DNA of 64,000 nt from Closterium sp. NIES-65 (lineage: Eukaryota > Streptophyta > Zygnematophyceae > Desmidiales > Closteriaceae). The stretch lies in NCBI GenBank assembly GCA_948144175.1, contig CANXME010000875.1, positions 1,021,501 through 1,085,500 on the forward strand, in the 5' to 3' direction. Below the pieces are notes generated by a model. That model was not told the DNA's origin. It did not search any database and saw only the letters and a list, made by a program, of their open reading frames with translations. This document shows positions 13,901-52,400 of the stretch, in pieces (within the stretch, counting starts at the first letter, position 1; each line of letters begins with the position of its first letter). The position numbers and the translations under genes are program-made.

Positions 13901-16900
13901 GAAGAGAGTGGTAGGTAGGCAAGCTTGATACGTATGGTTAGAAATGATTTTCAGGAGTCTGAGCTTTGAATCCTCAGACAGTAACCTTGGTGAGGATTCT
14001 CATTTGCTTTAGCACCTTCGGATGCTGGCTTGGCACCTTCGGATGCTGGCTTGGCACCTTTGGATGCTGGCTTGGCACCTTCGGATGCTGGCTTGGCACC
14101 TTCGGATGCTGGCTTGGCACCTTCGGATGCTGGCTTGGCACCTTCGGATGCTGGCTTGGCACCTTTGGATGCTGGCTTGGCACCTTCGGATGCTGGCTTG
14201 GCACCTTCGGATGCTGGCTTGACATCTCGATGCTCACTGGGTCTCAATTGTTGCTCTTCATAATCCGATTTAAAATGTGCTGCTAATTTTCTCATTTTCA
14301 GTGAAGGTATTTCTGTAGTCCATTTGCAAGTAAACACACCGTTGTTCCATTCGCATTCATCATAGGTCAGTCTTGCTTTATTTATTTTCATCTCGTTTTC
14401 CCCTTCTACCCTGCCCACTGCCAGGAGTTTAGACGGCACGGGGCTAACCGGGTCGTTTCCATCCACCATTGGCACACTCACCAACCTGATGTCTCTGTAA
14501 TAATGGAAAAAAGCCAAAAATTGCATTCCCTTTTTGGATTGTCGCAACAGTTCTTACACTATATATATATGTATATATATATTTTATTGGATCGACTTGA
14601 TCACTCATGCAGCAATTGGTTTCACTCTAGAAGGGAATCTAATCCCAGCCTCCATGGTTCGTTGCTCATTTGAGCCTGTTCTATTCATTCCCTTGGTTCC
14701 TTCAGGGATGTTCTGTTCAATAGAATGAATGGCAGCATTCCAGATTCAATCGGCCAGCTCACAAAATTGAGCGCATTGTAAGTGCATTTCATTTCCATCA
14801 CGAATGAAAAATGTAGTCACAAGGCATGACTCATGAGCAACAGTTTGACCCTGGTTAGGCCCGTTATGGATGGGACTGGGCTTGGTCCACAATGTGTTGA
14901 TCCCCCATGATGGACTCGCCTGTTTGTCGAGACGCAAACTCTCACGGCCTGACGAGACTTGGCCACTTGAGCCGCACAAGTCCCTTTCGAGGCCACTTGT
15001 CTGAGTTCCCACTTCAGTTGCTCTCAACTTAATAGGCATCCTCCCACCCACCCACCGCTGGGTCGAGCCTGTGTGCCTTCCACAGATATTAGTGGTGGCA
15101 TGTTTTCGCTGGTTGGAAAGTTATAGATGCTAATCAAATCGATAGAAGAGGTCCTCCGACATTACTTACCTGAATAGGTTTGACCCGACAGGTTAACTCA
15201 CTCGAATAGGTTTCCAGCGCTAGCCCGAGTTCTTTCTCTACTTCTGCCAAATGTGAGGGGCCTGACTACATTTGCTTTGTTATATTGCATGGCAACTTTT
15301 ATTGTGAATATTCTCGTATGGTCGAGGCCTAAAATACACATGGTTCCAGAACATCTTTAACATGTTAGGCTTGTGCTTGTAAGAGAATGTAGTGCCACCG
15401 TGTTCACCTTACCACCAGGATGACATGACTCCTGGCCCTCACTGCTGTAGTGGTCGACCTGCAAGCTTGACCCGAGCGAGAGTTGGGCGGGCGCAAGAGG
15501 GTGCTGGCACGGCAGGGAGTATTGGATGATGGCAGCACGCTACAGACAGCACTGACAACCGCCCCAGTACTGATCCTGCCCGATCCAGATAAGGAGTACG
15601 ATCATGGCCGCACTGCTCCAGCACGGATCAGTGCTGGGGTTGTTGAAGGATGGTGGTGGGGCGCTGGAACCTCGCTGGTCAGTGTGATGGAGTCCACCAG
15701 AACTGCCCTCTCTCCCTCTTTCCCTCCCTCCCTGACTACATCCCCTCTCCATCTCTGCCTACCCCTCCCCTCCACCTCGCAGCTACATTCAGGGGAACAA
15801 CTTCTCTGGCCACCTCCCTCCCTCCATGGGAAACCTCACCAAGCTCTTTGGCCTGTATGGCGGAGTGTGGTGTATGGCGCAGTGTGATGTATGGCGTAGT
15901 GTGCTGTATGGCGCAGTGTGATGTATGGCGCAGTGTGATGTATGGCGCAGTGTGATGTATGGCGCAGTGTGATGTATGGCGTAGTGTGATGTATGGCGCA
16001 GTGTGATGTATGGCGCAGTGTGATGTATGGCGCAGTGTGATGTATGGCGCAGTGTGATGTATGGCGCAGTGTGATGTATGGCGCAGTGTGATGTATGGCG
16101 CAGTGTGATGTATGGCGCAGTGTGATGTATGGCGCAGTGTGATGTATGGCGTAGTGTGCTGTATGGCGCAGTGTGATGTATGGCGCAGTGTGATGTATGG
16201 CGCAGTGTGATGTATGGCGCAGTGTGATGTATGGCGCAGTGTGATGTATGGCGCAGTGTGATGTATGGCGTGATGCCACCCACAAAGAATGCGCCATTAT
16301 CTACCATGACCAGAATGTTGCATGGTGTGCTCTCATATTATACTTCAACACACTTTTTTTTGCAAGCACTGTTCTTCTGCAATAGCACATCGTAACTTGA
16401 AATGTATTGCCATGGTTCGATGAGCATCTGTCTCGTCGTTCTGTTCGTCTGCAGGATTCTTAATGGCACGTCACTGACATGCCCGCCAAACAATGCCAAC
16501 TGTGAGGTTGAGCAGCACCCTGACAGCGCCTTCTGCAAGACATGCCCCGCTTTCTGCTCCTCCTGTGTCGCAGCACCTGCAGGTATGGCAGCACCTGCAG
16601 GTATGGCAGCACCTGCAGGTATGGCAGCACCTGCAGGTATGGCAGCACCTGCAGGTATGGCAGCACCTGCAGGTATGGCAGCACCTCCTTGTATGACCTC
16701 TTTTTTATATCCTGCCCTGGAAGATTCGAGTGTCTTGTGGTTCGCATCATGCACAAACGCGCAGTAGTTCAATCAAGACGGCCAACCACTCATGCGTGCT
16801 GTGCTGTGCGGCTTGATGCTGTAATTGTGTGTGCGTGCATCATCTGCCTTCTACCTCCCCCCTCCACATGAGCACCTGCAGCACCCCCCTCAGCTGACAC

Positions 16901-17219
16901 CCCAGCGCCCCCCACCACAACAGCTCCAGCGCCTCCCTCAGCCTCCACACCTCCAGCACCACCCATTAACACTGCACCCGCGCCTTCTCCATCGCAAGGG
17001 GGTCTGTCCACAGCTGCCATTGCCGGCATCGCTGTTGCTGCTGTGGCTGCCCTCCTGCTGGCAGTGCTGCTCGGTGCACTGCTGTGGCGGAGGCACAGCC
17101 AGGGAAAGGCATTCCCGAGGGCTGCCCCTGCAAGCAAGGAGGACTGCCAGGGTGTGACTTTCTCTCTAGCCCCTTCATCTCCTCTCTCCTCATTCAACCC
17201 TTCCCTCCCACCTCCGTAA

Positions 17220-17294
<75 letters not shown>

Positions 17295-20200
17295 CCCCCC
17301 CCCCCCCCCCCCTACTGCACCTTTTCTAATCATCCCGTCTTCCACTGATCCTGAACTGTCTATCCTTGTCTCTGCATCTACCTATTCACCCATCATATGT
17401 CTCATAGAATCCGTCCATGTATTCCCTCCGACTCCCATCCATTCGTTCTCAAACAAGCACGATATTCTATCCTTCCATCGTCTTCCCCCATTGTGGATCT
17501 GTCTAAAGGCTCCTTGCCTGAATCACTTTCCGCCTTTTTTTTGGTGAGCTATACCGAAGCCAAATTATGGTCTTCGTAATCCCATGACCACAACTCACAC
17601 GTATACTCTTGCCATGCCATCCATCTAGTCCGTCTAACTCTACTCCAATGCACATGCCTCATGACCCCCTTCCACGTTGTCGCACACCCCCCACTAAAAC
17701 ACTCTCCAGCCATGGTCGCAGACAGCACAGAAGCAGCAGCGTCAGCAGCGGCGGCAGCAGCAGCAGCAGTAGGGAGTGAGAAGGAAGGGGTGGTGGTGGA
17801 GGTGGGGGCGGCGCGGGCGGATGTGTGTCGGGAATATTCCCTAGAGGACATGGCAGCAGCCACGGGGGAGTGGGCGGAGCGCAACAGGATTGGCAGCGGC
17901 AGCTTTGGCGACGTGTACAGAGGTGTGAACCCGCATGGTGGGAGCGAGGTGTGGGCGGTGAAGCGCGCTCGAGTGCTCACCAACGACTTCCAAAGAGAGG
18001 TGGCACTCGTGTGACTCTCGTGTGACTCTCGTGTGCCTCTCGTGTGCCTCTCGTGTGACTCTCGTGTGCCTCTCGTGTGCCTCTCGTGTGACTCTCGTGT
18101 GCCTCTCGTGTGACTCTCGTGTGACTCTCGTGTGCCTCTCGTGTGACTCTCGTGTGACTCTTGTGTGACTCTCGTGTGCCTCTCGTGTGCCTCTCGTGTG
18201 CCTCTCGTGTGCCTCTCGTGTGCCTCTCGTGTGCCTCTCATGTGCCTCTCGTGTGCTTCCCGTGTGCTGCCTGTGTGCTTCCTGAGTGCTCACCAACGAC
18301 TTCCAGCGAGAGGTCACCCCTGAGCTTACTTGTGCTCCCCGTGTGCTCGTTGCAATTTCTCGTGCCACACCATTGTTTTCGGATAATAACGCCATCTACT
18401 TCCACTTGCACTTTTTGATTTGTTCCCGTCTCCCTTTGCAGGTGAGGGAGATGGCATCGAAGCACCACCCGAACCTGGTGCGGCTGCTGGGCTACTGCAT
18501 CGCATTTGACGCGGCAACACGCACCATGGAGCAAATACTCGTGTACGAGTTCATGCCCAACCACGACCTCGATGCCTGGGTCGCACCCGGTGCCGCCACG
18601 CCTCTCTCCCTGCGCCAGCGAATGGACATTCTGATCGTTGTGGCCAAGGGGCTGCAGTACCTGCATGACTTTGGCATCGTGCATCGCGACATCAAGCCCG
18701 CCAACATCCTCCTCAGCGCCACCATGCAGGCATGCTTGCAGCAATCCCTGCTTGCTCCTCGCTCTCATGCTATCAACCTCCCTCGCACTTCGTTCCACCC
18801 TGCCTTATTCCTCAGTCATTCATTCTTGAATAAGCCACTGCTGCTCCTGCCGTTGTGCTGTGAGTGAGGGCTCCTGTGCAACCATTCATCATTGAATTGG
18901 CCACTGCTGCTCCTGCAGGCCAAGATTGCGGATTTCGGGCTGGTGAAGCTGAGTGGTGGCACGGCTGCGGGCACAACAGTGGCAGCCACTCGAGTGATGG
19001 GCACACCGGGCTTTGTGGACCCCGCCTACTGCAAGTCCCACAAGGCCACCCCCATGGCCGATGTGTACAGGTGAGGAGAGGCACCCCCTATGGCTCATGC
19101 ACTGGGTGCAAAAAGATAACTGATGTGCGTCGGTGCAGACGAGGACATTGCAGATTGTAGAGCACGTGAGAGGGCAGTGAAACGTGACTAGGAGACCAAG
19201 TGCAAAGCGGATTGTCCGTGCCTTGTCATCGTCTTCACTGCTACGATTCTTCCAAAGTCTGATGTTGTTTGCTTTGTGATGGCAGCTTTGGGGTGGTGAT
19301 GCTGGCGGTGATCACGGGACGCAAGGCAGTGCAAGAGGTAGAGGGCGGCCATGTGAACCTCAAGCAATGGGTGAGGCATGAGGGGAGCAATGGGTGAGGC
19401 ATGAGGGGAGTAATGGGTGAGGCATGAGGGGAGTAATGGGTGAGGCATGAGGGGAGCAATGGGTGAGGCATGAGGGGAGTAATGGGTGAGGCATGAGGGG
19501 AGCAATGGGTGAGGCATGAGGGGAGTAATGGGTGAGGCATGAGGGGAGTAATGGGTGAGGCATGAGGGGAGCAATGGGTGAGGCATGAGGGGAGCAATGG
19601 GTGAGGCATGAGGGGAGCAATGGGTGAGGCATGAGGGGAGTAATGGGTGAGGCATGAGGGGAGCAATGGGTGAGGCATGAGGGGAGCAATGGGTGAGGCA
19701 TGAGGGGAGCAATGGGTGAGGCATGAGGGGAGCAATGGGTGAGGCATGAGGGGAGTAATGGGTGAGGCATGAGGGGAGCAATGGGTGAGGCATGAGGGGA
19801 GCAATGGGTGAGGCATGAGGGGAGTAATGGGTGAGGCATGAGGGGAGCAATGGGTGAGGCATGAGGGGAGCAATGGGTGAGGCATGAGGGGAGCAATGGG
19901 TGAGGCATGAGGGGAGTAATGGGTGAGGCATGAGGGGAGCAATGGGTGAGGCATGAGGGGAGCAATGGGTGAGGCATGAGGGGAGCAATGGGTGAGGCAT
20001 GAGGGGAGTAATGGGTGAGGCATGAGGGGAGCAATGGGTGAGGCATGAGGGGAGCAATGGGTGAGGCATGAGGGGAGCAATGGGTGAGGCATGAGGGGAG
20101 TAATGGGTGAGGCATGAGGGGAGCAATGGGTGAGGCATGAGGGGAGCAATGGGTGAGGCATGAGGGGAGCAATGGGTGAGGCATGAGGGGAGTAATGGGT

Positions 20201-20787
20201 GAGGCATGAGGGGAGCAATGGGTGAGGCATGAGGGGAGCAATGGGTGAGGCATGAGGGGAGCAATGGGTGAGGCATGAGGGGAGTAATGGGTGAGGCATG
20301 AGGGGAGCAATGGGTGAGGCATGAGGGGAGCAATGGGTGAGGCATGAGGGGGGCAATGATCGAGCTGAGTGCTGATGCTCTTCATAAGGCTGCCTGATAT
20401 GATCAAGCTACCACGAACCCTCCACAGCATTGGAGCTGCATCTACAAAGTCTCCCTCCTCCTATGCGTGTAGGTGGAGCCACTGGTGGCATCCAATTCAG
20501 TCACGGCCTTCAGAGACCCTTTCTTGGACGCCCCGGATGACATTCTGCTGCGCCTGGCCCGCCTGGCTCTCTCGTGCACCGCCATGCCCACGGCCTCGCG
20601 CCCGTCTATGGGCAAGGTGCTGGGGGAGCTGGTGGCGATGAGGGGGGAGATAGTGGGCGAGGAGGTGGACAAGGTGGCGTCGCGCATCGACAGCGAGATT
20701 GACACGTCCACCGATCTCGACTTCAACGCTTCAATTGCCCGTGCCCACGAGATTGCCACGCAGAGCGGTTCCTCTGATACTGTGTGA
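10915..20787 (+). CDS. LRR receptor-like serine/threonine kinase (5' end unresolved)
   Basis: A membrane receptor kinase. Exons that keep one open frame: 10915-11053 (Cys/Trp N-cap), LRR exons 11936-12007, 12747-12818, 13444-13518, 14706-14777 and 15783-15854 (72 nt each, one of 75), 16455-16582 (Cys cluster), 16882-17151 (Pro-rich stalk plus one membrane helix, followed by LLWRRHSQGK), 17710-17999, 18442-18729, 18919-19070, 19286-19370 and 20473-20787. The kinase shows the Gly loop GSGSFGDVYRG, the Lys of WAVKRA, VHRDIKPANILL, ADFGLVKL and GTPGFVDPAY, so it should be catalytically able. The LRRs would read an extracellular ligand and the kinase would signal inside. All junctions are GT-AG except a GC-AG intron at 18730-18918. 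Several introns start with minisatellites that repeat the donor site. The upstream signal-peptide exon was not found. Family is secure; ligand is unknown. Confidence 0.88.
11060..11275. repeat. Degenerate GCATGGGGCATGG repeats in intron 1
   Basis: Short units around GAAGCATGGGGCATGG recur irregularly. A second copy of the exon-end sequence (ATCACGTGCAACGCGCAAGG, about 11143) lies inside, so the exon edge was duplicated along with the repeat. The inverted copy has a matching array at 31490-31660. Confidence 0.7.
12628..12725. repeat. 25-bp minisatellite before an LRR exon
   Basis: Three to four copies of a 25-bp unit containing CCATTCATGCGAGCCCCCCA end about 20 bp upstream of the LRR exon at 12747. 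One fainter unit survives in the inverted copy. Confidence 0.8.
13951..14547 (-). CDS. Orphan 198-codon ORF antisense to an LRR intron
   Basis: An ATG-to-stop frame lies on the minus strand inside the intron between the LRR exons at 13444 and 14706. The first 110 residues are of normal complexity, rich in charged and aromatic residues (for example YDECEWNNGVFTCKW). The rest is ten copies of a 7-residue repeat (AKPASEG or AKPASKG) written by the 21-bp minisatellite. I do not recognise it and see no catalytic motif. It could be a nested gene, a piece of a captured gene, or chance; the repeat alone would not give the non-repeat half. Evidence for expression is lacking. Confidence 0.3.
   Translation of the reverse strand: MRQSKKGMQFLAFFHYYRDIRLVSVPMVDGNDPVSPVPSKLLAVGRVEGENEMKINKARLTYDECEWNNGVFTCKWTTEIPSLKMRKLAAHFKSDYEEQQLRPSEHRDVKPASEGAKPASEGAKPASKGAKPASEGAKPASEGAKPASEGAKPASEGAKPASKGAKPASEGAKPASEGAKANENPHQGYCLRIQSSDS
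14011..14222. repeat. 21-bp minisatellite, ten copies
   Basis: Ten near-identical 21-bp units carrying CACCTTCGGATGCTGGCTTG, with two T variants. The length is a multiple of three, so all reading frames stay open through it. Confidence 0.95.
15855..16270. repeat. 17-bp minisatellite starting at a 5' splice site
   Basis: About 24 copies of gtatggcgcagtgtgat. The first unit begins at the donor that ends the LRR exon 15783-15854, so every copy supplies another GTATGG donor. A few units carry single-base variants (gtagtg, gtgct). Confidence 0.93.
16583..16690. repeat. 18-bp minisatellite with donor and acceptor in each unit
   Basis: Five exact copies of gtatggcagcacctgcag and a sixth variant copy follow directly on the exon 16455-16582. 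Each unit opens with a GTATGG donor and closes with a CTGCAG acceptor-like end; the exon itself ends with part of the unit. In frame each unit encodes a six-residue Met-Ala-Ala-Pro-Ala-Gly cassette. Confidence 0.95.
17221..17312. repeat. (CT)n tract followed by poly-C
   Basis: About 70 bp of CT dinucleotides run into about 20 C residues, within the intron after the membrane-helix exon. It is a long polypyrimidine tract on the coding strand, some 400 nt before the next acceptor. Confidence 0.95.
18000..18275. repeat. 11-bp minisatellite at the kinase exon donor
   Basis: About two dozen copies of gtgtgcctctc or gtgtgactctc start within the donor of exon 17710-17999. Just after the array (about 18283-18315) the exon end itself (GTGCTCACCAACGACTTCCA) is repeated with its GAG-GT junction, so exon edge, array and exon edge form a direct-repeat sandwich. 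Confidence 0.92.
18730..18918 (+). other. GC-AG intron in the kinase domain
   Basis: The frame from VHRDIKPANILLSATMQ into AKIADFGLVKL is restored only if the intron runs from GCATGC at 18730 to CTGCAG at 18918. No GT is placed to give the same join. This makes it a rare GC-AG intron between the catalytic loop and the DFG motif. Confidence 0.75.
19371..20352. repeat. 23-bp minisatellite spanning an exon-intron junction, about 43 copies
   Basis: The 23-bp unit consists of a GTGAGG donor, CATGAGGGGAG and the last exon bases CAATGG or a TAATGG variant. The array starts at the exon 19286-19370 donor, so each unit rebuilds both sides of the junction. In the second half the variants follow a C,C,C,T order that makes a 92-bp higher-order repeat. 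Confidence 0.95.
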
Positions 20788-21480
20788 GCTATGGTTTGAC
20801 ACTGCACACGTCAAGTATTCCTAGGTGTGTCTCGATTACAATTGGCAACAATCAGAATCTTTGGACGTGTCAATGGGGGGGCTGGTTGCTGTTTTCCATT
20901 GACTAAGAAACAATGTCATTTTCTAGCTTTCCAAGTTCTTGCAATCAGATGCCTTGGACAGAAGCTGCTCTGCATAAGTCACGACGAGAGATTTCTACGC
21001 ATTCAATTGATGGGTTGGGTAGCTTCATTATCTATGCCAGGAGGTAAATTCAAAACGAGTCTTCATGCTCCATTGTACTTCAATAATGCATTGCTGACAA
21101 AAGACCAAGTTCTGCTCACGTGGGAGCAATACAACAGATGGCTGCTGTTCTTTGTTTGAAGAATAAAGCAGAGACCAAGATGTATTTGCCATGGACATAG
21201 AGTTATACAAACACAGATCTACCATGGAAGATCTCTTCCATCACATTGTACTCAAAGCTAACCAGTTTACCATACAAGCCTACGGCAGTTTTCCCAAATT
21301 ATAGAGCGAGTTGATGTCACCTACGAAAAAGGCCGTCCACTAATGACACCTCCTCACATAAACTCTCGTATTTTACCATTTCCTCGCTCGATTTGGCCAT
21401 TGTTTCATTGACAGTATAGCAAGATAGAAAAAGGACCAAGCTGCAGCGCTTTCAGGGAGATGGGTTGGGAATGGGGGAAA
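20788..21480 (+). other. 3' flank of the receptor kinase with a possible poly(A) signal
   Basis: No further coding exon is seen after the stop. An AATAAA hexamer lies at 21162-21167, about 375 nt downstream, and could be the 3' end signal. The rest is AT-rich and unremarkable. Confidence 0.4.
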
Positions 21481-22202
21481 AGGGATGCAAGTCAAGTGGG
21501 TGCTTAAGTGCGTGCTGCTGCTTTGCTGCATGCAGCCGGTCCTCCTCTGGCATGCAGTGTGGGAGAGCAGGAGAGGATAAGGGAAAGGATACGCATGAGG
21601 AAGAGAGGTGTAAGTCAGGAGCATGCCGAAGCGCCTCCTCTTGGCCCCAGACCATCCTCCTGTGGGGCACGACTTTGTGAGAGGGATGACCGAGGGGCAT
21701 GATGGTTTGAGGTGTTTTGGAAGGCACAGCGGTAAGTGCAGGAGATTTCAGAGAAATTACTAACTATATCATTCTTCCACATACCATTCACACACAAACC
21801 CCCAATTGCCCCCTTACGCCCATTCCCACCTGTCATCCTCACTCACTTGCTATCCTCCCTTCCCAAAAATCATCCCCACCCATCCCCAGTAATTCCCAAT
21901 CCTCCCCATTCCCACGTACCGTGCATCACCTTCTGTTGCAGCTTCAGCAGCTGCTCGTCCGGGTCCTTGACCTCGCCCTCACGATCCCGCACCTGATAGG
22001 GGGGGAGGGGAAAGATGTGACACGGTGCGAGGCCATGGCATGTGGTGGATGTGTTGGGTGCTCGCTGTAAGCGTGTGTTGGGTGCATGGGCATGGTTAAG
22101 GTTCCTTGGTGCTTCACTGCTACGTCCAGATCATTGAATCTCGCCCTCACGCTCGTGCATCTGGTGGGGGGGAACATGGTGACTGCATAGCTATGGCACG
22201 TG

Positions 22203-22272
22203 GCGCATGGCTATGGCATGGGCGCATGGCTATGGCATGGGCGCATGGCTATGGCATGGGCGCATGGCTACG
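22203..22272. repeat. 20-bp minisatellite
   Basis: About three and a half copies of a 20-bp unit containing GCGCATGGCTATGGCATGG. Confidence 0.85.
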
Positions 22273-22432
22273 TCTGATGCATAATTATGGCATGTGGAGT
22301 ATCATGGTGCACAAGACATGAGCATGGTGCGTGCACATGTCATAAGGCAAGCTCGTGGGACGTTACAGGGAAGGGGAGGGGAGCCTGTTTTTGAGAATTC
22401 TCAAAAAACACGCTCTACAGGGAAGGGAAGGG

Positions 22433-22532
22433 GGGCCTGTCCACAAGGGGAGCCTGTCCACAAGGGGAGCCTGTCCACAAGGGGAGCCTGTCCACAAGGG
22501 GGGCCTGTCCACAAGGGGGGCCTGTCCACATG
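22433..22532. repeat. 17-bp minisatellite flanked by short palindromes
   Basis: About six copies of ggagcctgtccacaagg. On each side stands a palindrome of the form TTTTGAG-NNNN-CTCAAAA (about 22391 and 22535), each next to the same GGGAAGGGAAGGGGGGCCTG word, so the whole block is partly repeated. Confidence 0.85.
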
Positions 22533-23888: not shown

Positions 23889-23977
23889 CACACACACACG
23901 CAAGCACACGCGCGCGCGCACATGCACGCACGCACACACGCACGCGCGCGCGCGCGCGCACACACACACACACACAA
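23889..23977. repeat. Alternating CA/CG microsatellite
   Basis: Some 90 bp of nearly pure purine-pyrimidine alternation, including runs of CGCGCG. Such tracts readily take the Z form. Confidence 0.95.
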
Positions 23978-24030
23978 CAGGCCACATGCAGTGACGAATA
24001 TCAAAAAATTGTTTTAAGCCGCCTCAAAGA

Positions 24031-24455
24031 TGCATGCGAGCAGTGAGTACAGTTAAAGAGCAGCCTTAAAGGGCGAGTCCAGTTAAAGAGCAGCCTTAAA
24101 GGGCGAGTCCAGTTAAAGAGCAGCCCTAAAGGGCGAGTCTACTTAAAGAGCAGCCTTAAAGGGCGAGTCCAGTTAAAGAGCAGCCTTAAAGGGCGAGTCC
24201 AGTTAAAGAGCAGCCTTAAAGGGCGAGTCCAGTTAAAGAGCAGCCTTAAAGGGTGAGTCCAGTTAAAGAGCAGCCTTAAAGGGCGAGTCCAGTTAAAGAG
24301 CAGCCTTAAAGGGCGAGTCCAGTTAAAGAGCAGCATTAAAGGGCGAGTCCAGTTAAAGAGCAGCCTTAAAGTGCGAGTCCAGTTGAAGAGCAGCCTTAAA
24401 GGGCGAGTCCAGTTGAAGAGCAGCCTTATAGGGCGAGTCCAGTTAAAGGGTGAGT
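24031..24455. repeat. 30-bp minisatellite, about 14 copies
   Basis: Units of 30 bp around CCAGTTAAAGAGCAGCCTTA. The period is a multiple of three and the minus strand reads an open NWTRPLRLLF repeat, which I take as a by-product and not a protein. Confidence 0.95.
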
Positions 24456-31067: not shown

Positions 31068-31489
31068 AGTGGGGAGGGAGGAGGAAGAGGATGACGAGGT
31101 GGTGGAGTAGAAGAATAGAAGGCAGCAGGGTGAGTATAGTGGGGTGGGGATGGACTTAGGAGGAGATATAGGCTAAAGGCCGGTACTTGCCTAGGTATGC
31201 ATAGGGGTAGCGGCAGAATTAGTGGACCTTAGCATGCCTGTTTCTCCTTATTGTAGGTTGTTATCGGTTTCCTAGTCTTTGTTGTAGCCATTTCAGTAGA
31301 TTCTGGAAAAAATCCGACTCAAAAAGGGCCAACAAAAAAACGACAATTTTTTTTGGAAAACCGAACGTATTATACCATCGAAAAAAACGCCCCGTATAAT
31401 ATGATAGCCGTATTTTTTATCCTTGGTCGGTGCTGAAGGGTCTGGGTCCAGTTCGAGTGCCTAACCCAATGCATACCCCATGCTTCGCT

Positions 31490-31660
31490 CGCATGCCCCA
31501 TGCTTCCCACCCATCCCATACCCTACTATACTTCACTCCATACCCCATGCTTCGCTCCCATACCCCATGCTTCACTTCCATACCCCATGCTTCGCTCCCA
31601 TACCCCATGCTTCGCTCCCATACCCCATGCTTCGTTCCCATACCCCATGCTTTGCTCCCG
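31490..31660. repeat. 20-bp minisatellite in the inverted copy
   Basis: About eight copies of a 20-bp unit containing CATACCCCATGCTTCGCTCC. It is the counterpart of the 11060-11275 array in the plus-strand gene but was amplified separately. Confidence 0.9.
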
Positions 31661-32733
31661 TGCGTCACCTACATTGCATCGATCATGCCTTGCGCGTTGC
31701 ACGTGATGTTCTGTGCATGTGGCGTCGGCCCATACGGCCCACACATGGCTCCTGCCTGCCACCCCTCGAACGTCCTCCCCCACGCCTCCTGCAGCACTGG
31801 CACTGGGCGCCGCAAGTTCGAAAGGCGCACCCAAGTGAGGGCGCAGCAGACGGGTGAGGGCAGGAGCCAGGCAGGGGCAGCAGAGAGGGTGGCAGGCAGC
31901 AGAGAGGGTGGTGGGCAGCAGAGAGGGTGGTGGGCAGCAGAGAGGGAGGTGGGCAGCAGAGAGGGGTGGACGGAGAGTTCGATAAGGATAAAATATCGTG
32001 GAGAAGACGAGGGGAGGGGAATGGGTGGAGCAACAATAAACCCATGAGCAGGAAGGGGTTGAAAACGGGAGGGAAGGGGGCAAGGGAGGGGGGAGGGGGG
32101 AGAAAAACCAGAGAAAGAGAGGGAAGCGAGAGACAGGATGTAACGAATGAGAGTCATGCAATGAGATGCACCCACGTCCCTCGCAACACAACCCTAGCCC
32201 ACTACACCGCCCCTGACTGTCGCTCCGCTTTTCAGATGCAAATGCGCTCCACGCCACAATAAGCCGAGCACACACTGGAAATGCAAACGGGAGGAAATCG
32301 ACAGCCCGTAGGGGGACGGAGGGAAGCGAGCCTGAAGCTGTGCCGTGGCGTTGCGGAGGTGGGCGACATGGTGCGAGGCACGGCGAAATGGTTGTAACAT
32401 AGTGCGACACCATGATGGTGACAGGAGGGACGAGAGACTGAAACGGAGGCGAAATAACGGACCTTGGGAGGGATCTATGACGGACTGGAGAGTCAGCAAA
32501 ACACATGAGGAGGCACAGCGTGAGCGCGCCGCCGCTTAGTTAACGTCTGAAGCAGCCCATCAGTAGGCCCCGTCGAACAGCCGCGACGCACCAACTGCGC
32601 CTTCGCAACCCTAACGCAAACCTTGCACAAACGAAAAATGCTTCGATCAGGGCGAGTCATTGTTTCTGTTTCACGGAAATTACATCAGTACAACTAAGTC
32701 AGGACGCTTCGGATGACAAACATCCAAACCAAG

Positions 32734-41874: not shown

Positions 41875-42110
41875 GGGGGCAAGGGCGCGGGAGGGGCTGG
41901 TGGGGGCGGTGGAGGTGGTGGTGGAGGCAATGGAGGGAGTGGGGGTGGTGGTGGGAGTGGTGCCGGGGGTGGCGGCGGCGGCGGCAGCAGTGGAGGCGGC
42001 GGAGGCGGCGGTGGTGGCGGAGGGAGCGGAGGCGGCGGGGGTGGCGGAGGAGGCGGAGGTGGAGGAGGCGGCGGAGGCGGCGGCGGCGGAGGTGGCGGTG
42101 GTGGAGCGGG
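41875..42110. repeat. Gly-codon repeat tract in the Copia element
   Basis: About 230 bp of GGC/GGT/GGA triplets encode nearly pure glycine. It is G-rich on the plus strand and may fold into G-quadruplexes. Confidence 0.9.
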
Positions 42111-45100
42111 TCGCGACTCTGCGCAGAGGAGTGGGGCAGGTAATGGTCCGCGCCAGAAGCAGCGGAGTGGTGTGACCCTGTCCCCTCAGCAGCTTCGTGA
42201 GTGGTACACTGCGCCCCAACGCAGCGCGGGGGGGGTTTTGGTCCCTGCACTTACGTCCTCCGTACCGGTGACCGAGCTGGTGAGCAGTGCGAGGGCCCGC
42301 ACTCCACCAAGCGCTGCTTCAGTCGCCTAACAAACACGTGGCGTCGCCAGTTCCCTGAGGCGTCAGAGATCCCTCGCTGGGGAGATCTGTCTAGGGCGGG
42401 GGTTGCCGTCTTTGATCTTGACTATGATGCTATCCTTGCTGCCATGTATTCTATGACTATTAGTGTTGAGGGTGACTAATACCTGTGTGTACCGCCTGAC
42501 CCGGGAATTGAGGCCACTGCTCTAGGTGCTGGTGAGGCTGCTGCTCTAGGTGCTAGTGCGTCTGCTGCCCCAGGTGCCAGTGCGTCTGCTGCACCACCAG
42601 GTGCCAGTGCGTCTGCTGCCCCAGGTGCTGGTGAGTCTGCTCTCTCAGGTACTACGTCGGCTCAGGCCTTCCACACCTTCACCCTTGACTCGGGTGCGTC
42701 CCGCTCCTTCTTTCGAGACCGCACCACTCTTACGCCGCTCAGTCGGCCGGTTGCAGTCTCCCTGGCGGACCCCTCTGGGGGTCCTGTCCTTGCTAGCTTC
42801 TCCACTGTCTTACCGTGCTTGGCAACCCCCTCTAGCACCGTGTCAGGTCTCTACCTCCCCTCGTTCTCTACGAACTTGGTGAGTGGAGCGGACCTACAGG
42901 ATAGGGGGGTTGACCAGTTCACTCTTGCGAGTCAGCGAGTGACCCACTGCACGTGTGCTCGGACAGGCCGACACTTGGCCACGTTCACTCGTCGGCCAGG
43001 GTCGAGCGTGTACACCCTTACCACTGAGTCTCCTCCGGCTACTTAGTCTGGCCAGGTAGCTGCGTGGAGTCAGGTGTTTGCTGCAGCGTCCGGGTCTGGT
43101 CCTGAGTCTGCTCCCTGCTCGTGTCGTCTCCTGTCCCACCAGACTCTCCTCTGGCACCACCGCCTTGGTCACCCCTCCCTGCCTCGTCTCCGAGGCACGG
43201 CCTCCCGTGTCCTTGTCTCTGGTCTCCCTCGGTCTCTCCCTCCCCTACCTCCGGGGCCTGGCCCTACCTTCGTCCCCTACGTCGAGGGGCGACAGCGCGC
43301 CGCCCCTCCCTCCTCCGAGTTTCCTCCGACAGAGGCTCCGCTAAAGACCCTCCACATGGACGTGTGGGGCCCCGCCCGCGTCCGTGGACAGGGGCACGAG
43401 CGTTACTTCCTGTTGTTGGTTGACGACTACTCGCGTTACACCACAGTCTTTCCCTTGCGCAGCAAGGGTGGCGTCATTGAGGTGTTGATCGACTGGATCC
43501 GCGCAGCTCGTCTCTAGCCGAGAGAGAGTTTCGGCTCGGACTTTCCTGTTCTGCGTCTGCACTTTGACAGAGGCGGGGAGTTTTCCTCTGCCCGTCTGGG
43601 AGCCTTCTGTCGTGCACAGGGCATTCGCCAGACCTTCACGCTTCCGGCCTCTCCACAACAAAATGGGATTGCTGAGCCCCGCATTGGCATGGTCATGGAC
43701 GTCGCTCGTACGTCCATGATGCATGCGGCTGCCCCCCATTTTCTTTAGCTGTTTGCGGTTTAGTACGCCGCGCATCAGCTCAACCTTCAGCCCCGGGTCT
43801 CCTTGCCAGAGACCTCCCCCGCCTTGCGGTGGATCGGGAAGGTTGGCGATGCGTCTGCGTTTCGGGTCTGGGGATCTCGGACGTTTGTCCGCGACTTGTC
43901 TGCGGACAAGCTGTCCCCCCGTGCTGTTCCCTGCGTCTTCCTTGGCTTCCCCCCTGACGCGCCTGGGTGGCAGTTTTACCACCCCACCTCGCGCCGTGTT
44001 CTGTCCTCCCAGGACGTCAGCTTTGACGAGTCGGTGCCTTACTACCGTCTCTTCCCCTACTGCACTGCGCCCCTCCCCCCGCCGCCGCTCTTCCTTGCAC
44101 CAGGTCCTCCCCTGGTAGACCCCCTCCTCCCTCAGGGTCCTGCCCCGTCAGGTGTGTCCCAGGTAGACGCAGTCGAGCCTATCGAGGTAGCTGTTGACTC
44201 TGGTGCTGCTAGAGGTGGTGAGCCTGCGGGTGCCGGGTTTGGGGGTGCTGAGACAGGGGGTGCTGAGCCTGGGGGTGCTGGGTCTGGGGGTGCTGGGTCT
44301 GGGGGTGCGGAGTCAGGGGGTACTGAGACTGGGGGTGCTGAGTCTGGGGGTGCTAAGCATGGGGGTGCTGGGTCTGGGGGTGCGGAGCGTGGGGGTGCGG
44401 AGCCTGGAGGTGCGGAGCCTGGGGGTGCCGAGCCTGGGGGCGCTGGGTCTGCTCATCTGGCCGCCGGCGGTGCTTCGTCGAGGCGGGAGCCATTCTCTCC
44501 ACAGGAGCTGCGCGAGTGGTTTGCTCGCCGCTGGAGACGAGCTGCAGAGATTGGGGGTGCTGCTGGGGCTACTGGAGTTGGTCCTGCTGGAGCTACTGGC
44601 GGTACTAGTGCTGCTGGAGCTGGATCTGCTGGGGGTGTTGGCGCTGGTGTTTCTACTGGCGCTGGTGCGTCTGGGGGTGCTGCTGAGGCTGCTGAAGCTG
44701 TTGGGGGTGTTGGCGCTGGTATTTGTGCTGGCGCTGGTGCGTCTGAGGGTGCTGGAGTTGGCGCTGTTGGAGCTGGAGGTGGTGCTGGCGCTGGTGCTGC
44801 CGCTGGGGGTACTTGTGCAGTCCTTGCTGGTTCTGGAGGTGCTGCGCAGCCGAGGCCGTACTTCGTTCCGCTCCTTGAGCAGGTTCTTGGTCTCCCACCC
44901 TCTACTGGTCCTGCTCCTCCCTTAGAGTGTCCACAGCCTGTCCAGTCGCGGTCACAGTTACAGCCCGCCTCCCCCCTACCTGCTCCTTCTCCCTACACTG
45001 GTCCTACTGGAGGCCTTGCTGAGCGTCGTAAGCCTGCGTCTCGTCCTGGGTCGCCTGTTCGTGCTGCTCGCACTAGTGGTCGTGCTCCGCGTCCTCGTCC

Positions 45101-47382
45101 TCCTGCGGTCCCAGGCACACACTAGATGGCACTACGCCCTTCCATTGCTCCTCTGCGTGTCCCGTTGCCGTCTCCTCCAGAGTCCTCTCTTCCTGGCCAC
45201 TGTTGTCACTGACCCTTCCTTTGAATCCACTGCTGCGTCTGCCTTAGTTGCTGAGCTTGTCGAGTTTACTGCTCGCTGTCGTCTAGACTACGCCGCTAGT
45301 CTTGTTGCTGAGTCTGAGTCTGTCTGTCCTCCGTTCGTTGGGGGTGAGTGTGCTCTTAGCACGGACGTCCTTGAGGACAGGCAAGAGGAGTTCCAGTCTT
45401 TTGCTGCTGCTTTGCCTCATCTCGTGTCCACGCTGATTGCCCCTGAGGGAGACCCGGATGCACCAGACATCCCGACTCCTCGATCGTACGCTGGGGCGAT
45501 CGAGGGTCCCTACTCCTCTCAGTGGCAGTCAGCCATGGACGTAGAGATGGCTTCCTGGAAGTCCACAGGCACCTACGTCGACGAGGTTCCTCCACCTGGG
45601 GCGAACATTGTCAGTGGCATGTGGATTTTCAGGGTGAAGCGGCCTCCGGGTTCTCCGCCTGTCTTCAAGGAGTGTTACGTGGCTCGAGGCTTCAGTTAGC
45701 GGCAGGGAGTTGACTACTTCCAGACCTTCTCTCCCACCCCGAAGATGACCACTCTTCGGGTGCTGCTGCACATAGCCGCTCAGCGCGAATACGAGCTTCA
45801 CTCTCTTGACTTCAGCACAGCTTTCCTGCAGGGCAGCGTGCACAAGGAGATCTGGCTACGCCGCCCACCTGGCTTCAGTGGGTCGTTTCCCCCTGGTACC
45901 CAGTGGAGCCTCCGTCGGCGAGTCTACGGTCTCCGCCAGGCACCCCGTGAGTGGCAAGACACACTGAGGACTACACTTGCGGCTCTTGGGTTTGCTCCTT
46001 CTACAGGCGACCCGTCGCTGTTTCTGCGCACCGACACCTCTTTGCCGCTGTTCTACATCCTCGTGTACGTCGACGACTTGGTCTTTGCCACAGCTGACAC
46101 TAATGGACTCGCCCACATGAAGTCCGAGCTGCAGAAGAGACACACGTGCACAGACCTGGGTGAACTGTGCAGCTACCTTGGCTTGCAGATCACCCGGGAC
46201 AGAGCACAGCGCACCATTACCCTGACTTAGTCACACATAGTGCAGCAGGTCCTTCAGCGCTTCGGCTTCACGTACTCCTCGCCTCAGGCCACTCCTCTGT
46301 CTACTAGCCACTCGCTCTCAGCTCCGCCTTCGGATGAGTCCGTAGAGCCGAGTGGCCCGTACCCAGAACTTGTTGGCTGCCTCATGTACCTGATGACCTG
46401 CACACGACCTGACCTTGCATACCCTCTTAGCATCTTGGCACGCTATGTTGCTCCTGGGAGACACTGACCAGAGCACATGGGTGCAGCGAAGAGGGTGTTG
46501 CGCTACGTGTGCAGTACGTCGGGCATGGGCTAGTGCTTGGAGGGCGACGTCGAGTGGTCCTCACTGGGCACGCAGACGCTTCTTGGGCTGACGAGCAGGC
46601 TCTGCACTGGTCGTCACATGGTTACACCTTCAGCCTTGGCTCCAGCTCTGTTTCGTGGCGGTCTACTCGCTCGTCCTCTGTTCTTAGCTCCAGCTGTGAG
46701 GCTGAGATCTATGCAGGGGCCATGGCTGCACAGGAGCTACGCTGGCTCACCTACTTGCTGGCTGACCTAGGAGAGCCGCCTCGTTCTCCTCCAGTTTTGT
46801 ACGTAGACAACAAGGCCATGTTGGCCTTGTGTCGGGAGCACAGACTGGAGCACAGAACGAAGCACATTGCTCTCCGCTACTTCCTGGCTCGTGAGCTGCA
46901 GCAGCGTGGTGAGCTCCGCCTCACCTACGTGGCCTCTGAGGCCAACACTGCTGATATCTTCACCAAGGCCCTTCCGCCTTGTGATCATCAGCGCTTCTGT
47001 ACTTTGCTAGGTCTTGTGCCTACCTGGCCTCACTTGCTTACTTCTTGATCTTGTTTGTACTGTACTCTTTCTATACCTGCATTTGCTTGTTTACCTTTAT
47101 ATATATATGATCTTGCATGTGAACTCGCCTTGTGGCCTTGCTCTTGTGCTCGGACTGTGTGGTGACTTTGTGATCCACCCTGAGCTTGCTTTGCTTCGCT
47201 TGACTGGTCTTGTGACCACTTGTTCTCCCCCACTTTGCCTATGGGGGTGTGTCAGAACATTATAGCTTATACATCCGTGTAGGCTGTAGTGGGGTAGCCC
47301 ATAAGGGGTACAACCCAATTAGGGTTAGTACTTGTACCCAACTGTTTCATAGTTCAATCATTCTCTCGTTCTAATCTTCACA

Positions 47383-47452
47383 AACCTGTCGCCCACGCTG
47401 CCCGCGGTCGCCCCGAGTTCAATCCCGCCTGTAACCCTGCGTGCGGGGATAG
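47383..47452 (+). CDS. 3' end of the second unknown gene, beyond the Copia insertion
   Basis: The sequence after the Copia 3' LTR continues the last exon of the unknown gene that stops at 39841, ending in a TAG at 47450-47452 (SSIPPVTLRAGIA). It is too short to interpret on its own. Confidence 0.5.
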
Positions 47453-49407
47453 CATAGGCTGCAGTGGCAGGTGGGATTTTGGATTTCGCTTTGTCCTGCC
47501 ACGGGTCGCACGTGTCGCAGTCAGGTGTAGCCGCCATGTCGCTGCAATGTTTGCACTGGCCCATGGGACACGGACGCCAGAGTATGTGTGTTGTGAATGT
47601 GTGTGACTCGGTCGTCTAATGTGTGTTGTCGCTTTTGTGTTTTGATGGCTGCATGTAATAGAGTAGTCCCTATAAATATATTTTTTGTGCAATTTGAATC
47701 CGGGTTCCATTTAAACATGGGAACAAATCGTTGTGCTATAACGCACCCGTGCCACAATTTTAACGGTAGCATGCGGTTCGTGCGGGCGACGCTCCCATTT
47801 TCGGAATGGCGCGAAAACCCGCGTGTTACCCGGTGACACGTTACTGTTACACCCATGCTGGATCCCCTCTATGTAGTCATGTTGCCGTTTGTAGCACATA
47901 CACCTACAGTGACATCAATCGCGTCCCTATTATGTTTATAATAATTACTTCTTGTTCTATCGAGTGTACGCAACAGTGGTTGTCCTAGACGCGGAACGTC
48001 CAGAACAGGGGATCGACATTGTCTTGAGATTGCTAGAACAATCTCTAGGGTTTGTCCCAGTGGGTGGTTTGCGCAGTCTCCCGACACTCCCGCCGTCTAT
48101 CATTGCATTGTCAATAATAATGTTAGCTGTATGTTGTCACGCGATACTTTTGACAGTCCATGTGCAATGTATTGACACTGTTTTCGCACCAATTTCTTTG
48201 TGACGACGTTTCAGGTAGCTAAAATGTTCCATGTACTGTGTTGGACCAGGGCTGTCGATTCAAGGGCATTTGCCCTTAATGCCCTGAACATTCCGGGCGA
48301 ACTCACAGCCAGCTTCGGCATTTCAAAGGGTTGGTTTCGAGGGAAGCCCGTTTTTCTTACGGGCTGGTTTTGAGAAATAGGGGGTCCTAGCCCGGATCCG
48401 TTAAGGGCTGATTCGGGGCCTTTCCCTGATTTCCCGGATCAGGAGTAGATTAGCCCTGCGAGTTGCCCAAGTTGCCACTCTTATCCTCCCACTCTCATCC
48501 TCCGTGTATCTCCCACAAGCTATCTACTTAGGCACGAAATGACTTTCTTGTGTTGATGTTATGGCTGTAGTTGCAAAATATTTTCAAGTCAATTCGTCTC
48601 CTCACAGTTCCAAGTACTCACTGGACTCGCGACACTGACACCCTACGAGGCCAAGAGGAAATTGCCCCATCAGTTCACACTAGTAGTACTACATGAAAAA
48701 CGACCACCTCGGAAGTGCTTTGTGATTGTACACACGAGTTTAAGCGACTTCTTTGCTGACGATGTTTTGCCCTACGACCCCTCTCCTCCCCCCCCCCCCC
48801 CCCCCCACCCCACTTCCCCCCTCGTTGTAGGTATGCAGATGAGTCGTTAGCATACTCCTTCTCGCTGCTAAGTAATAGGTTGAAGCCCGGATGTCAAGTT
48901 TTGTGCCATTACGGCTCACGTACATTTTTGTAGGAAGCCCGGATGTCAAGTTTTGAATTTGACCTGCGCCCGTGATCGTTAAGGGCTAAAAAACGGTCAC
49001 CTTTGCGAAAATCAGGGCCAAACTTCGAACAGCTCATAACTCAAAGTGTTGGTCCCAGGGACTTCGACAGGCCTGTGTTGGACCAGCCCGGAAGCAGAGC
49101 AGCGTGCCATCCTTCATCGCGCTGCCCGCGCTGCCACTCTCCTGCTTCTGTCACGGCGTCTTATGGGCAATTTAAGCGACTAGCACGTGTAGTCGCTCGA
49201 TTCGCGGGTCGATCTTGCTGTGGAAGAAAGCTCCAAGCGTAGCAATTTTGAGTCGCGTGTTATCTGGCGACCTTGTGTGCGACACCCAGTCACGCTAGTC
49301 CATCTCTTCGCGATGAAGCTTATGATCGAAGCTCAACGTCACCTTGCCACGAGAATACATTTACAAGAGTTCAGGTTTGACCATCGTAGCTGTTCCTGTT
49401 CGCCATC
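47453..49407. other. Intergenic region before the transporter gene
   Basis: No gene is supported. It contains a C20 run (48787-48806), two copies of GAAGCCCGGATGTCAAGTTT (about 48882 and 48935) and TGTTGGACCAG twice (48239 and 49078). The last few hundred bases should be the promoter and 5' untranslated region of the transporter. Confidence 0.5.
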
Positions 49408-52400
49408 ATGTCGACCAATGAGATCCAAGCGCTTCTCTCGCCGCGATTCGCCACAAGCGATGCCATCCATGCCGGAACGATCACGGCCGTCTCGCCAAAA
49501 GGGGAATCGAGTCGGCTTATAGCGAATAATGGCGAAGACGTTATCGTGCCAGCGGACCTGGAAGATGACATTGCTGAGTCAGCATCGGCGTCTGGTGGCC
49601 GCGGCGCGTCGCCATGGTGCGCGCCGTGGCTGTGGACGGCGGTTAAGGTGGTGGGGCTCGTGGTGCTCTGGCACACCTTCAGCACGGCGCTCTCCCTGTA
49701 AGCACGGCGCTCTCCCTGTAAGCACGGCGCTCTCCCTGTAAGCACGGCGCTCTCCCTGTAAGCACGGCGCTCTCCCTGTAAGCACGGCGCTCTCCCTGTA
49801 AGCACGGCGCTCTCCCTGTAAGCACGGCGCTCTCCCTGTAAGCACGGCGCTCTCCCTGTAAGCACGGCGCTCTCCCTGTAAGCACGGCGCTCTCCCTGTA
49901 AGCACGGCGCTCTCCCTGTAAGCACGGCACTCTCCCTGTAAGCACGGCGCTCTCCCTGTAAGCATGCCGCGTTCCTTGTAAGCATGCCTCTTTCCCTGTG
50001 TAGCCACCCCTCCCTGTAGCTACCACTCTCCCAGTACGTGATCAAGTCTCTCACAGGGCTGGCCATCCTCCGGGCCGTTGCATTGCAGTAACGAACAAGC
50101 GGCACGCGGAGGCCTTACTTCCATCAAATCGTGTTGTTTTTAGACAACGAAACGAGCCCCATGGGCTGGCCAACCACTGGGCCCGTTCGCCCGTATTTCC
50201 CTTGGCAAGAAACCCGTTTTTGCCCCCTGCTGTACCCGTGCACTCCCGCTATGCATCGCACTCTCATGCCATGCATGTACACACGGGGGGGGCGGTGGTG
50301 GGTGGGTGGACGGGTGGGTGTGGGTGGGTGGGTGGGTGGGTGGGTGGGTGGGTGGACGGGTGGGTGTGGGTGGGTGGGTGGGTGGACGGGTGGGTGGACG
50401 GGTGGGTGTGGATGGGTGGGTGGGTGGGTGGGTGGGTGGGTGGACGGGTGGGTGTGGGTGGGTGGGTGGGTGGACAGGTGGGTGTGGGTGGGTGGGTGGG
50501 TGGGTGGGTGGGTGGGCGGGTGGGCGGGCGGGCGGGTGGGCACTTGGCAGGTACATCAAGGCGTTGATCGGCAAGACGCACGGGCGCTTCCCGGTGCCGC
50601 TAATGATGACCACCGTGCACTTCCTGGTGCAGGGCGGCATCGCCTCGCTGCTGCTGCCACTCGTGGCTGCCCGCCTCGCCTGGCGCAACTACTTCGTGCG
50701 AGGTACGCCGTGTGGGTGGGAGGGAGTGGGCATGGGCACGCTCGGGAGCTCATGCATGCACGTCCTGCAACGTGACCATTGAGGCTAGTTCAGGCGACTG
50801 TCTAATGGATGCTTACTTGTTTAAACGTGTGTCGGCCTGTGCCCCGTGTGCTGTTGTGCTGTGCCCCGTGTGCTGTTGTGCTGTGCCCCGTGTGCTGTTG
50901 TGCTGTGCCCCGTGTGCTGTTGTGCTGTGCCCCGTGTGCTGTTGTGCTGTGCCCAGTGTGCTGTTGTGCTGCGCCCCGTATCCTGTTGTGCTGTGCCCCG
51001 TGTGCTGTTGTGCTGTGCCCCGTGTGCTGTTGTGCTGCGCCCCGTGTGCTGTGCCCCGTGTGCTGCTTCACCCCATGCGCTGCTGTGCCGTGCCACGTGC
51101 GTGCATGCAGTGGTGCCCACGAGAGTCGCCACATCGCTGGACATTGCCCTCTCCAACCTCTACCTCGCGCTCGTCACCCTCACCTTCTACACCATGGTTC
51201 GCATTCCTTCCCGCCCTTCGTCATCACTGTGCGATATCTTATCTGCTTCATTCACTGCAGTCTTGGTCAAAATGATCCACTTACGTGGGTGCGCTCAAAA
51301 GTGGGTGCGCTCAAAAGTGGGGGCAATGTCTTATCCGTTTCAGAAAGAGTCGAGTGTGGCACTCAAATTTGGGTGCGCTCTCCACACACACACAGCACGT
51401 TGCGATGCATAGAGTAGAATAATTGACTCGCGCATCAACAGTGGCATAAAACCTCTCTCCTGCGCCATATCCCCTCCCCTGCCTGCGCATGTCCCAGTGC
51501 AAATCCAGCGCGGGTGTCTTCCTCCTCCTCTTCGCCTTCCTCTTCCGGTGAGCCACGCCACCGTGATTGCCATGCCATCCTCACCGTGACTGCCATGCCA
51601 TCCTCACCGTGACTGCCATGCCATCCTCACCGTGACTGCCATGCCATCCTCACCGTGAGTGCCATGCCATCCTCACCGTGACTGCCATGCCATCCTCACC
51701 GTGACTGCCATGCCATCCTCACCGTGACTGCCATGCCATCCTCACCGTGACTGCCATGCCATCCTCACCATGACTGCCATGCCATCCTCACCGTGACTGC
51801 CATGCCATCCTTACCGTGACTGCCATGCCATCCTCACCATGACTGCCATGCCATCCTCACCGTGACTGCCATGCCATCCTCACCCTGACTGCCATGCCAT
51901 CCTCACCGTGACTGCCATGCCATCCTCACCCTGTCTGCCATGCCATCCTCACCGTGACTGCCATGCCATCCTCACCGTGACTGCCATGCCATCCTCACCG
52001 TGACTGCCATGCCATCCTCACCGTGACTGCCATGCCATCCTCACCGTAACTGCCATGCCATCCTCACCGTGACTGCCATGCCATCCTCACTGTGACTGCC
52101 ATGCCATCCTCACCGTGACTGCCATGCCATCCTTGTTAGAGACTAAGGACGGAGTCTACGAAGATTAGGTGCCGAAATTTCTCAAAATCGTTGGCTTAGA
52201 ATTCTGGACAGAATTTTCGAGTTCACAAGAAACGCCGTCGACAAGAAACGCACTGCTGAAACTTCACCAATTTCACATATGTTATAGCTCTAGTCCATGG
52301 CTACAATTCCCAATTTGAATCGTATAGAAAGGTGAAATAAATCTTGACTTATCAATTTCGGCGCACAGGGGGGTATGCTGCCATAAGAACTTAACTCAAT

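What the first reader, a model, noticed from the sequence alone, without database searches (positions are those of the whole stretch)
15855..52133. Minisatellites that begin at, and multiply, 5' splice sites
In two unrelated host genes, at least six introns open with a tandem array whose unit holds the donor site: 15855 (17 bp, GTATGG), 16583 (18 bp, GTATGG), 18000 (11 bp), 19371 (23 bp, GTGAGG), 49698 (20 bp, GTAAGC) and 51548 (23 bp). At 16583, 19371 and 49698 the unit also contains the last exon bases, so the whole exon-intron junction is copied 6 to 43 times. Chance placement of arrays exactly at donors this often is unlikely. Possible causes are repair slippage at transcription/splicing-linked breaks, or selection for donor redundancy.
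Basis: partly seen in the sequence, partly recalled or inferred. Interest (0 to 1): 0.88.

Follow-up and report, generated by a model that had tools for sequence, protein, structure and literature searches.

The report
Donor-site minisatellites in Closterium introns
In this green alga some introns begin with a run of short DNA repeats that copies the exon-intron boundary itself, in one case about 890 times, which makes it a natural test of how the splicing machinery chooses one cut site among near-identical neighbours.

Summary
Correction: the donor hexamer is part of the repeated unit at four donors (15855, 16583, 19371, 49698). At 18000 and 51548 the array starts 6 and 11 bp after the donor and does not copy it. 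Copy number is unstable: a second, 96-99% identical copy of the region has 888 units (20.4 kb) at 19371 where the window has 43. Receptor-kinase paralogs carry arrays with different units at the same donors, so arrays arose repeatedly there and are younger than those introns. Genome-wide, three spaced CAG|GTGAGT occur 27,259 times against 40 for the reversed control; giant arrays inflate this, and per site the excess is roughly 4-9 fold on few loci. In 9 of 16 assessable loci drawn from that search, a coding exon appears to end at the first donor. Later donors would give a stop or frameshift in 5 of 6 window arrays, which argues against selection for backup donors. Closest precedent: amphioxus 'mirages'. 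Best reading: recurrent junction-spanning tandem duplication plus slippage, first donor used. Why donors are favoured is open.

The parts
10915..20787 (+). Gene 1: LRR receptor-like kinase, 13 exons modelled (10915-11053, 11936-12007, 12747-12818, 13444-13518, 14706-14777, 15783-15854, 16455-16582, 16882-17151, 17710-17999, 18442-18729, 18919-19070, 19286-19370, 20473-20787); the 5' end was not modelled
   Evidence: open 675-aa spliced protein; junctions against Closterium proteins; Pfam kinase 1.8e-38, LRR
15854..16270 (+). 17-bp array x24.5 (GTATGGCGCAGTGTGAT), starts at donor 15855; donor GTATGG copied, 1 exon base shared
16570..16686 (+). 18-bp array x6.5 (GCAGCACCTGCAG|GTATG) across donor 16583; 13 exon bases in the unit; in frame (GMAAPA)
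18006..18267 (+). 11-bp array x23.8 (CTCGTGTGCCT), starts 6 bp after donor 18000; donor GTGGCA not repeated
18286..18314 (+). Copy of the exon end 17973-18001 (GTGCTCACCAACGACTTCCA..GAGAG|GT) downstream of the 11-bp array
19363..20358 (+). 23-bp array x43.3 (AGCAATGG|GTGAGGCATGAGGGG) across donor 19371; 8 exon bases in the unit; 888.3 copies in the second genome copy
49408..51547 (+). Gene 2 (transporter-like), first exons 49408-49697, 50551-50702, 51111-51196, 51498-51547; continues to 63739 and beyond the window
   Evidence: frame; tblastn with a recalled plant transporter fragment hits exons 2, 3 and later exons; no Pfam family at E<=1
49681..49999 (+). 20-bp array x15.9 (AGCACGGCGCTCTCCCT|GTA) across donor 49698; 17 exon bases in the unit
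51559..52133 (+). 23-bp array x25 (CACCGTGACTGCCATGCCATCCT) starting 11 bp after donor 51548; donor GTGAGC not repeated
58667..58974 (+). Continuation of the 51559 array (x13.4) beyond a minus-strand Copia-like element; a further scrap at 63459-63508
31472..31659 (-). 20-bp array x9.1 about 17 bp after the putative donor of a minus-strand exon homologous to gene 1's first modelled exon (GCAAT|GTAGGT)

Best explanation
These are junction minisatellites. Short tandem duplications that cover or abut the 5' splice site arise recurrently. They then grow and shrink by slippage or unequal exchange into arrays of a few to hundreds of donor-bearing units. Splicing most likely uses the first, most upstream donor, which alone keeps the frame in 5 of 6 window arrays, so the extra copies ride along as intron. 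Shown: arrays at donors, copied junctions, copy-number instability, repeated independent arrays at the same donor, arrays younger than their introns at two kinase donors. Inferred: use of the first donor, slippage as the growth process, and that the excess at donors combines a mutational bias with tolerance of duplications that leave the first donor intact.
For: Units carry 8-18 exon bases at 16583, 19371, 49698 and in a third gene outside the window, and 10-16 at 5 of 9 genome-wide loci. Copy numbers under one TRF setting differ between the two copies of the region: 24.5/23.5, 6.5/7.5, 23.8/16.8, 43.3/888.3, 14.2/10.2. At the same kinase donors paralogs have different units: 23 bp (window) versus 21 bp x15 (L059, L105), and 18 bp x2.3-27.3 versus 22-24 bp. 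At the 19371-equivalent donor 20 paralog stretches have the intron start without an array. Genome-wide triples of CAGGTGAGT: 27,259 versus 40 reversed. A coding exon appears to end at the first donor in 9 of 16 assessable loci. First-donor use is inferred from the frame.
Against: No RNA: donor use is unseen. Arrays also lie mid-intron and next to acceptors, so donors are favoured, not exclusive. Arrays at 18000 and 51548 do not contain the donor. The 27,259 count is inflated by giant arrays; by loci in the listed part (C1 to within C179) it is 22 against 2, while single sites are 41,077 against 4,573: with array copies left in, 11:1 against 9:1 is almost no excess per site, and the 4-9 fold appears only when array copies are set aside. 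The kinesin control is weak.
Confidence: 0.6

Rival explanations
1. Tolerance alone. Tandem duplications arise anywhere in genes; those in exons or at branch point and acceptor are purged, those that leave the first donor intact survive, so surviving arrays pile up from the exon wall onward without any mutational bias.
For: Mid-intron arrays are common (14 of 20 neither near a donor nor near an acceptor in the kinesin sample; 5 of 11 away from donors in the window genes). Later copies are harmless if the first donor is used.
Against: Uniform placement predicts about 6-9% of arrays at donors; the window has 6 of 11. Units that include 8-18 exon bases are not explained by an intronic array growing up to an exon wall. 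Paralogs have independent arrays at the same donor.
Confidence: 0.25
2. Selection for donor redundancy: repeated donors back up a weak splice site or recruit U1 more efficiently.
For: Donor-bearing units are abundant genome-wide. At 16583 later donors keep the frame and would only lengthen an Ala/Pro linker.
Against: In 5 of 6 arrays a later donor gives a stop or frameshift. At 18000 and 51548 the donor is not duplicated. Strong consensus donors (CAG|GTGAGT) carry arrays too.
Confidence: 0.08
3. The arrays mark recent intron birth by tandem duplication of AG|GT (Rogers model; the amphioxus mirage model).
For: At 16583 the acceptor flank (AGCACCTGCAG|CACC) repeats the unit. Exon-end copies lie downstream at 18286, 11135 and in L055.
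Against: The 19071- and 19371-equivalent introns exist in paralogs that lack the arrays, so those introns came first.
Confidence: 0.1
4. Assembly artefact: array lengths or the second copy reflect misassembly.
For: Array length in repeats is easily misassembled; the (GT)221 run beyond the window abuts an N gap. No reads were seen.
Against: Arrays lie in the same place in two collinear copies with different unit variants and in many paralogs. Small arrays need no long assembly.
Confidence: 0.04

Closest known systems
Amphioxus 'mirages' (Adh3, globin, TnC, PGBD5); PMC3087553 and PMC3902484, passages read
   Same: Tandem repeats that span an exon-intron boundary, copies with AG/GT signals, haplotype differences in the globin repeats, reported not to disturb splicing; Adh3 units 10-72 bp.
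   Different: There a handful of genes in a chordate, globin units 150-160 bp and also 3' boundaries. Here a streptophyte alga, an array of 888 units, 27,259 genome-wide matches to a donor-triple pattern, and independent arrays at the same donor in paralogs.
Intron gain by tandem genomic duplication (Rogers model, cited in PMC3087553 passages; potato RdRp, PMC4974935, search listing only)
   Same: Duplication of a segment containing AG|GT that supplies splice sites.
   Different: For the 19071- and 19371-type donors the intron predates the array.
Introner elements (fungal ILEs, PMC4457414, search listing only)
   Same: Repeated DNA associated with introns in many genes.
   Different: Units differ from locus to locus: 17 distinct spacers in 22 listed loci. 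No shared mobile sequence seen.

Membership tests
Amphioxus-type mirages | Tandem repeat unit spans an exon-intron boundary | tested here: met
   8-18 exon bases in the unit at 16583, 19371, 49698 and in gene 3. Not met at 18000, 51548; 1 base at 15855.
Amphioxus-type mirages | Copy-number variation between haplotypes or copies | tested here: met
   all six window arrays differ between the two copies, 43.3 versus 888.3 in the extreme. Whether the second copy is an allele or a segmental duplicate is unknown.
Amphioxus-type mirages | Repeats do not disturb regular splicing (RT-PCR) | not testable with these tools
   No RNA data held.
Amphioxus-type mirages | Both 5' and 3' intron boundaries affected | tested here: inconclusive
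   Arrays beside acceptors exist (the 12637 and 50297 arrays; L070, L081); none was shown to contain the acceptor junction.
Amphioxus-type mirages | Found in cephalochordates (homology of the phenomenon) | tested here: not met
   The 120 listed of 1927 homologs of gene 1 are named Closterium: works like mirages, not the same lineage.
Intron gain by tandem duplication | Relatives lack the intron at that position | tested here: not met
   Paralogs have the 19371-equivalent intron without an array; not tested for the other array donors.
Introner elements | The same sequence inserted in many introns | tested here: not met
   17 distinct spacers in 22 listed loci; four different units at two kinase donors.

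The most novel reading that the evidence does not exclude
Closterium has a mutational process aimed at 5' splice sites (for example breaks or template switching at sites of U1 binding, R-loops or co-transcriptional splicing) that keeps duplicating exon-intron junctions genome-wide and expands some introns by tens of kilobases.
Probability: 0.3. Interest if true: 0.9.

Novelty: new variant of a known kind. Interest (0 to 1): 0.72.

Why it matters
An intron that opens with tens to hundreds of near-identical donors is a natural test of how the spliceosome chooses a 5' splice site: by position, by exon definition, or by decay of wrong products. If donors really are hot spots for tandem duplication, the cause could link splicing or transcription to DNA damage and give a source of intron growth and new splice sites in the algal group close to land plants. 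The listings of my paper searches showed no report of this in Closterium or another alga; I saw titles and abstract starts, and the library holds open-licence papers only.

Tried and rejected
Tried without result: gene 2 and gene 3 fragments have no Pfam family. The primary amphioxus Adh paper and the human tandem-array paper are not held. A replicate genome-wide test with CAGGTAAGT never got an answer in ten tries. A chaperonin family search (PF00118) was asked three times and never answered. An acceptor-motif control was planned and not run.

Considered and rejected: a mobile element spreading the arrays (units differ); one ancestral array inherited by the kinase family (different units at the same donor, arrays absent in many copies); the 680-fold count as an effect size. 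Giant arrays dominate that count: genome-wide 27,259 triples stand against 41,077 single sites, yet among the roughly 100 single sites listed first (C1-C27) only 11 lie in such arrays, two of them.

Weak points told: the -25..+15 interval was set after seeing the window. In the kinesin count one exon of L065 was added by hand after its array was seen, duplicate loci were represented once by my choice, one array was dropped as exonic or at an edge, and two of the five near-donor arrays are G-rich low-complexity DNA. In one search the 15 near-donor rows are 9 independent arrays by my judgement, and the table's offset for L059 is off because the script took the second copy as the exon end (the array begins 3 bp before the true exon end). 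Several of the 28 kinase stretches are near-identical to one another. In one search exon ends were read by eye in 17 loci, one per distinct spacer: 9 judged plain (L120, L122, L124, L126, L128, L130, L132, L133, L134; Pfam support for two peptides, L126 and L132, below the curated cut-offs, and none for the other seven), 1 with the exon end about 70 bp upstream (L121), 1 doubtful (L135, no Pfam match), 5 without a visible exon end at the array (L125, L127, L129, L131, L136), 1 not assessable (L123). In L120 the next copy after the exon's donor is 45 bp further on, and in L130, L132 and L133 the first donor is a variant of the pattern.
Full report
What the sequence is. The window lies at C874:1021501-1085500 of an 874-Mb genome in 2400 contigs. 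The 120 listed of 1927 homologs of gene 1's protein are named Closterium, best 78% to Closterium sp. NIES-53, so the host is a Closterium, a zygnematophycean alga. Gene 1 is an LRR receptor-like kinase with 13 modelled exons and one open 675-aa frame. Gene 2 has four exons before donor 51548. Gene 2 has no Pfam family at E<=1 and continues past the window.

The observation. All six arrays exist. The gene 1 donors are supported by alignment to Closterium proteins at 15855, 16583, 18000 and 19371. The donor hexamer is repeated at 15855, 16583, 19371 and 49698 but not at 18000 or 51548, where the array begins 6 and 11 bp into the intron. Exon bases inside the unit number 1, 13, 0, 8, 17 and 0. 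Of 11 intronic arrays in the two genes, 6 start within -25..+15 of one of 16 donors; under uniform placement P=2.2e-5, with the interval set after seeing the data. The five others lie mid-intron or near an acceptor.

Instability. A second collinear copy of the region (contig C1780, 96-99% identical over the long aligned pieces) carries the same arrays with other copy numbers: 24.5 against 23.5, 6.5 against 7.5, 23.8 against 16.8, 43.3 against 888.3, 14.2 against 10.2 (16 against 11 units laid out), and 25.0+13.4 against 18.0+26.4 where a retrotransposon splits the 51548 array. The 888-unit array is 20.4 kb long. Closterium vegetative cells are haploid, and duplicated genes are widespread in one species complex (PMC10407611, passages read), so the second copy may be an allele or a duplicate.

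Recurrence in paralogs. I fetched parts of 28 kinase paralogs, several of them near-identical to one another. At the donor equivalent to 19071, where the window has no array, 7 of the first 14 carry an 18-bp unit CACAG|GTGAGCAGATTGG in 2.3-3.3 copies. In the second batch three more have 2.3-2.7 copies, L116 has 27.3, and the C430 pair has a different 22-24-bp unit. At the donor equivalent to 19371, L059 and L105 have a 21-bp unit x15 unlike the window's 23-bp unit, and L055 has an 88-bp duplication of exon end plus donor. Twenty others show that donor without an array; L107 and L116 are cut off there and L112-L114 are unresolved. So arrays arose repeatedly at the same donors and are younger than those introns. 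In the set of genes 1-3 and the first 14 paralogs, 68 donors had 15 arrays starting at -30..+40 (9 independent by my judgement) and 4 at +41..+170; 57 acceptors had 2 near. The donors equivalent to 18000 and 18730 had none in the paralogs where they were seen.

An outside family. Kinesin exons served as a control. In 72 exons and 20 arrays, 5 started near a donor, 1 ended near an acceptor and 14 lay elsewhere; null 8.9%, P=0.028. Two of the five are G-rich low-complexity DNA and one depends on an exon that I added by hand; without the two G-rich arrays P is about 0.2 (hand calculation). The clear case is L065: a kinesin exon ends at CTG|GTGAGCG, where a 21-bp array begins. A third gene 11.5 kb beyond the window has a 28-bp x4.5 array with 18 exon bases in the unit, its exon read from the open frame alone. 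Gene 2 has a (GT)n run from the first base after another exon.

Genome-wide. The pattern of three CAGGTGAGT spaced by 5-30 bases occurs 14,472+12,787 times; the same pattern reversed 32+8 times, the latter at 11 loci. Single sites number 41,077 and 4,573. Much of the 27,259 must come from very large arrays, because the first 100 or so single sites listed hold only two such arrays. In the listed rows, C1 to within C179, there are 22 donor-array loci with 17 distinct spacers against 2 control loci. Against all single sites (9:1) that 11:1 is hardly an excess; against sites outside arrays (about 3:1 after subtracting the triples), or against the two arrays per 100 listed sites, it is roughly 4-9 fold, on few loci. 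I then read the DNA upstream of one locus per distinct spacer, 17 of 17. One was not assessable. In 9 of the other 16 a coding exon appears to end at the first donor (by eye); two of these peptides match Pfam families, Exostosin_GT47 1.3e-4 and Adaptin_N 2.8e-5, below the curated cut-offs, and the other seven match none convincingly. In 5 of the 9 the unit includes 10-16 exon bases.

How it most likely works. A tandem duplication that covers the junction leaves the upstream donor intact. Using that donor gives the normal protein. Using the next gives a stop or a frameshift at five of the six window donors; only the 18-bp array at 16583 stays in frame, adding GMAAPA to an Ala/Pro linker. So extra copies should behave as intron and be free to grow by slippage or unequal exchange. 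This explains persistence; it does not by itself explain the excess at donors, for which a mutational bias is the leading but unproven idea. Copies of exon ends further into introns (18286, 11135, L055, and by reading L120, L128, L133) suggest that junction duplication happens at several scales.

What is known. Amphioxus 'mirages' are tandem repeats over exon-intron boundaries reported not to disturb splicing (PMC3087553, PMC3902484; passages read). The Closterium arrays work like them, with one array far longer and a genome-wide signal. They are not introners, and at two kinase donors not intron births. I rate them a new variant of a known kind.

Noticed in passing
52134-58666 and 58975-63458: A minus-strand Copia-like element (by my reading of its ORFs) sits inside the 51548 array, and a second insertion carrying a transposase-like ORF (61083-63197) splits it again, so gene 2's fourth intron is about 12 kb. 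The Copia-like element splits the array in the second copy too.
   Followed up: partly
18286-18314, 11130-11180, and 63739 versus 63902: Copies of exon ends (or of a whole small exon of gene 2) lie further into the intron, on a larger scale than the arrays; paralog L055 and loci L120, L128, L133 look alike.
   Followed up: partly
11107, 22380, 22536, 63840-63900 and L136: Short palindromes of the form TTTTGAG..CTCAAAA recur near duplicated segments.
   Followed up: no
18730: Gene 1 has a GC-AG intron (CAG|GCATGC); several paralogs also show GC at this donor.
   Followed up: no
contig C1780, 2307111-2307365 (between window-equivalent 19071 and 19285): A 28-bp x9.1 array in the middle of an intron in the second copy only: an array born or lost since the copies split, not at a donor.
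   Followed up: no
L016 (C874:1085001-1095000), window-equivalent 65558-66000: A pure (GT)221 run begins at the first base after a gene 2 exon and runs into an assembly gap of N; the second copy has a degenerate GT/GC run there.
   Followed up: partly
13951-14553: A minus-strand ORF with a 21-bp coding repeat (KPASEGA) lies inside a gene 1 intron.
   Followed up: no
31472-31866: A minus-strand fragment of a gene 1 paralog has a 20-bp array about 17 bp after its putative donor, like the degenerate repeats at gene 1's donor 11054.
   Followed up: partly
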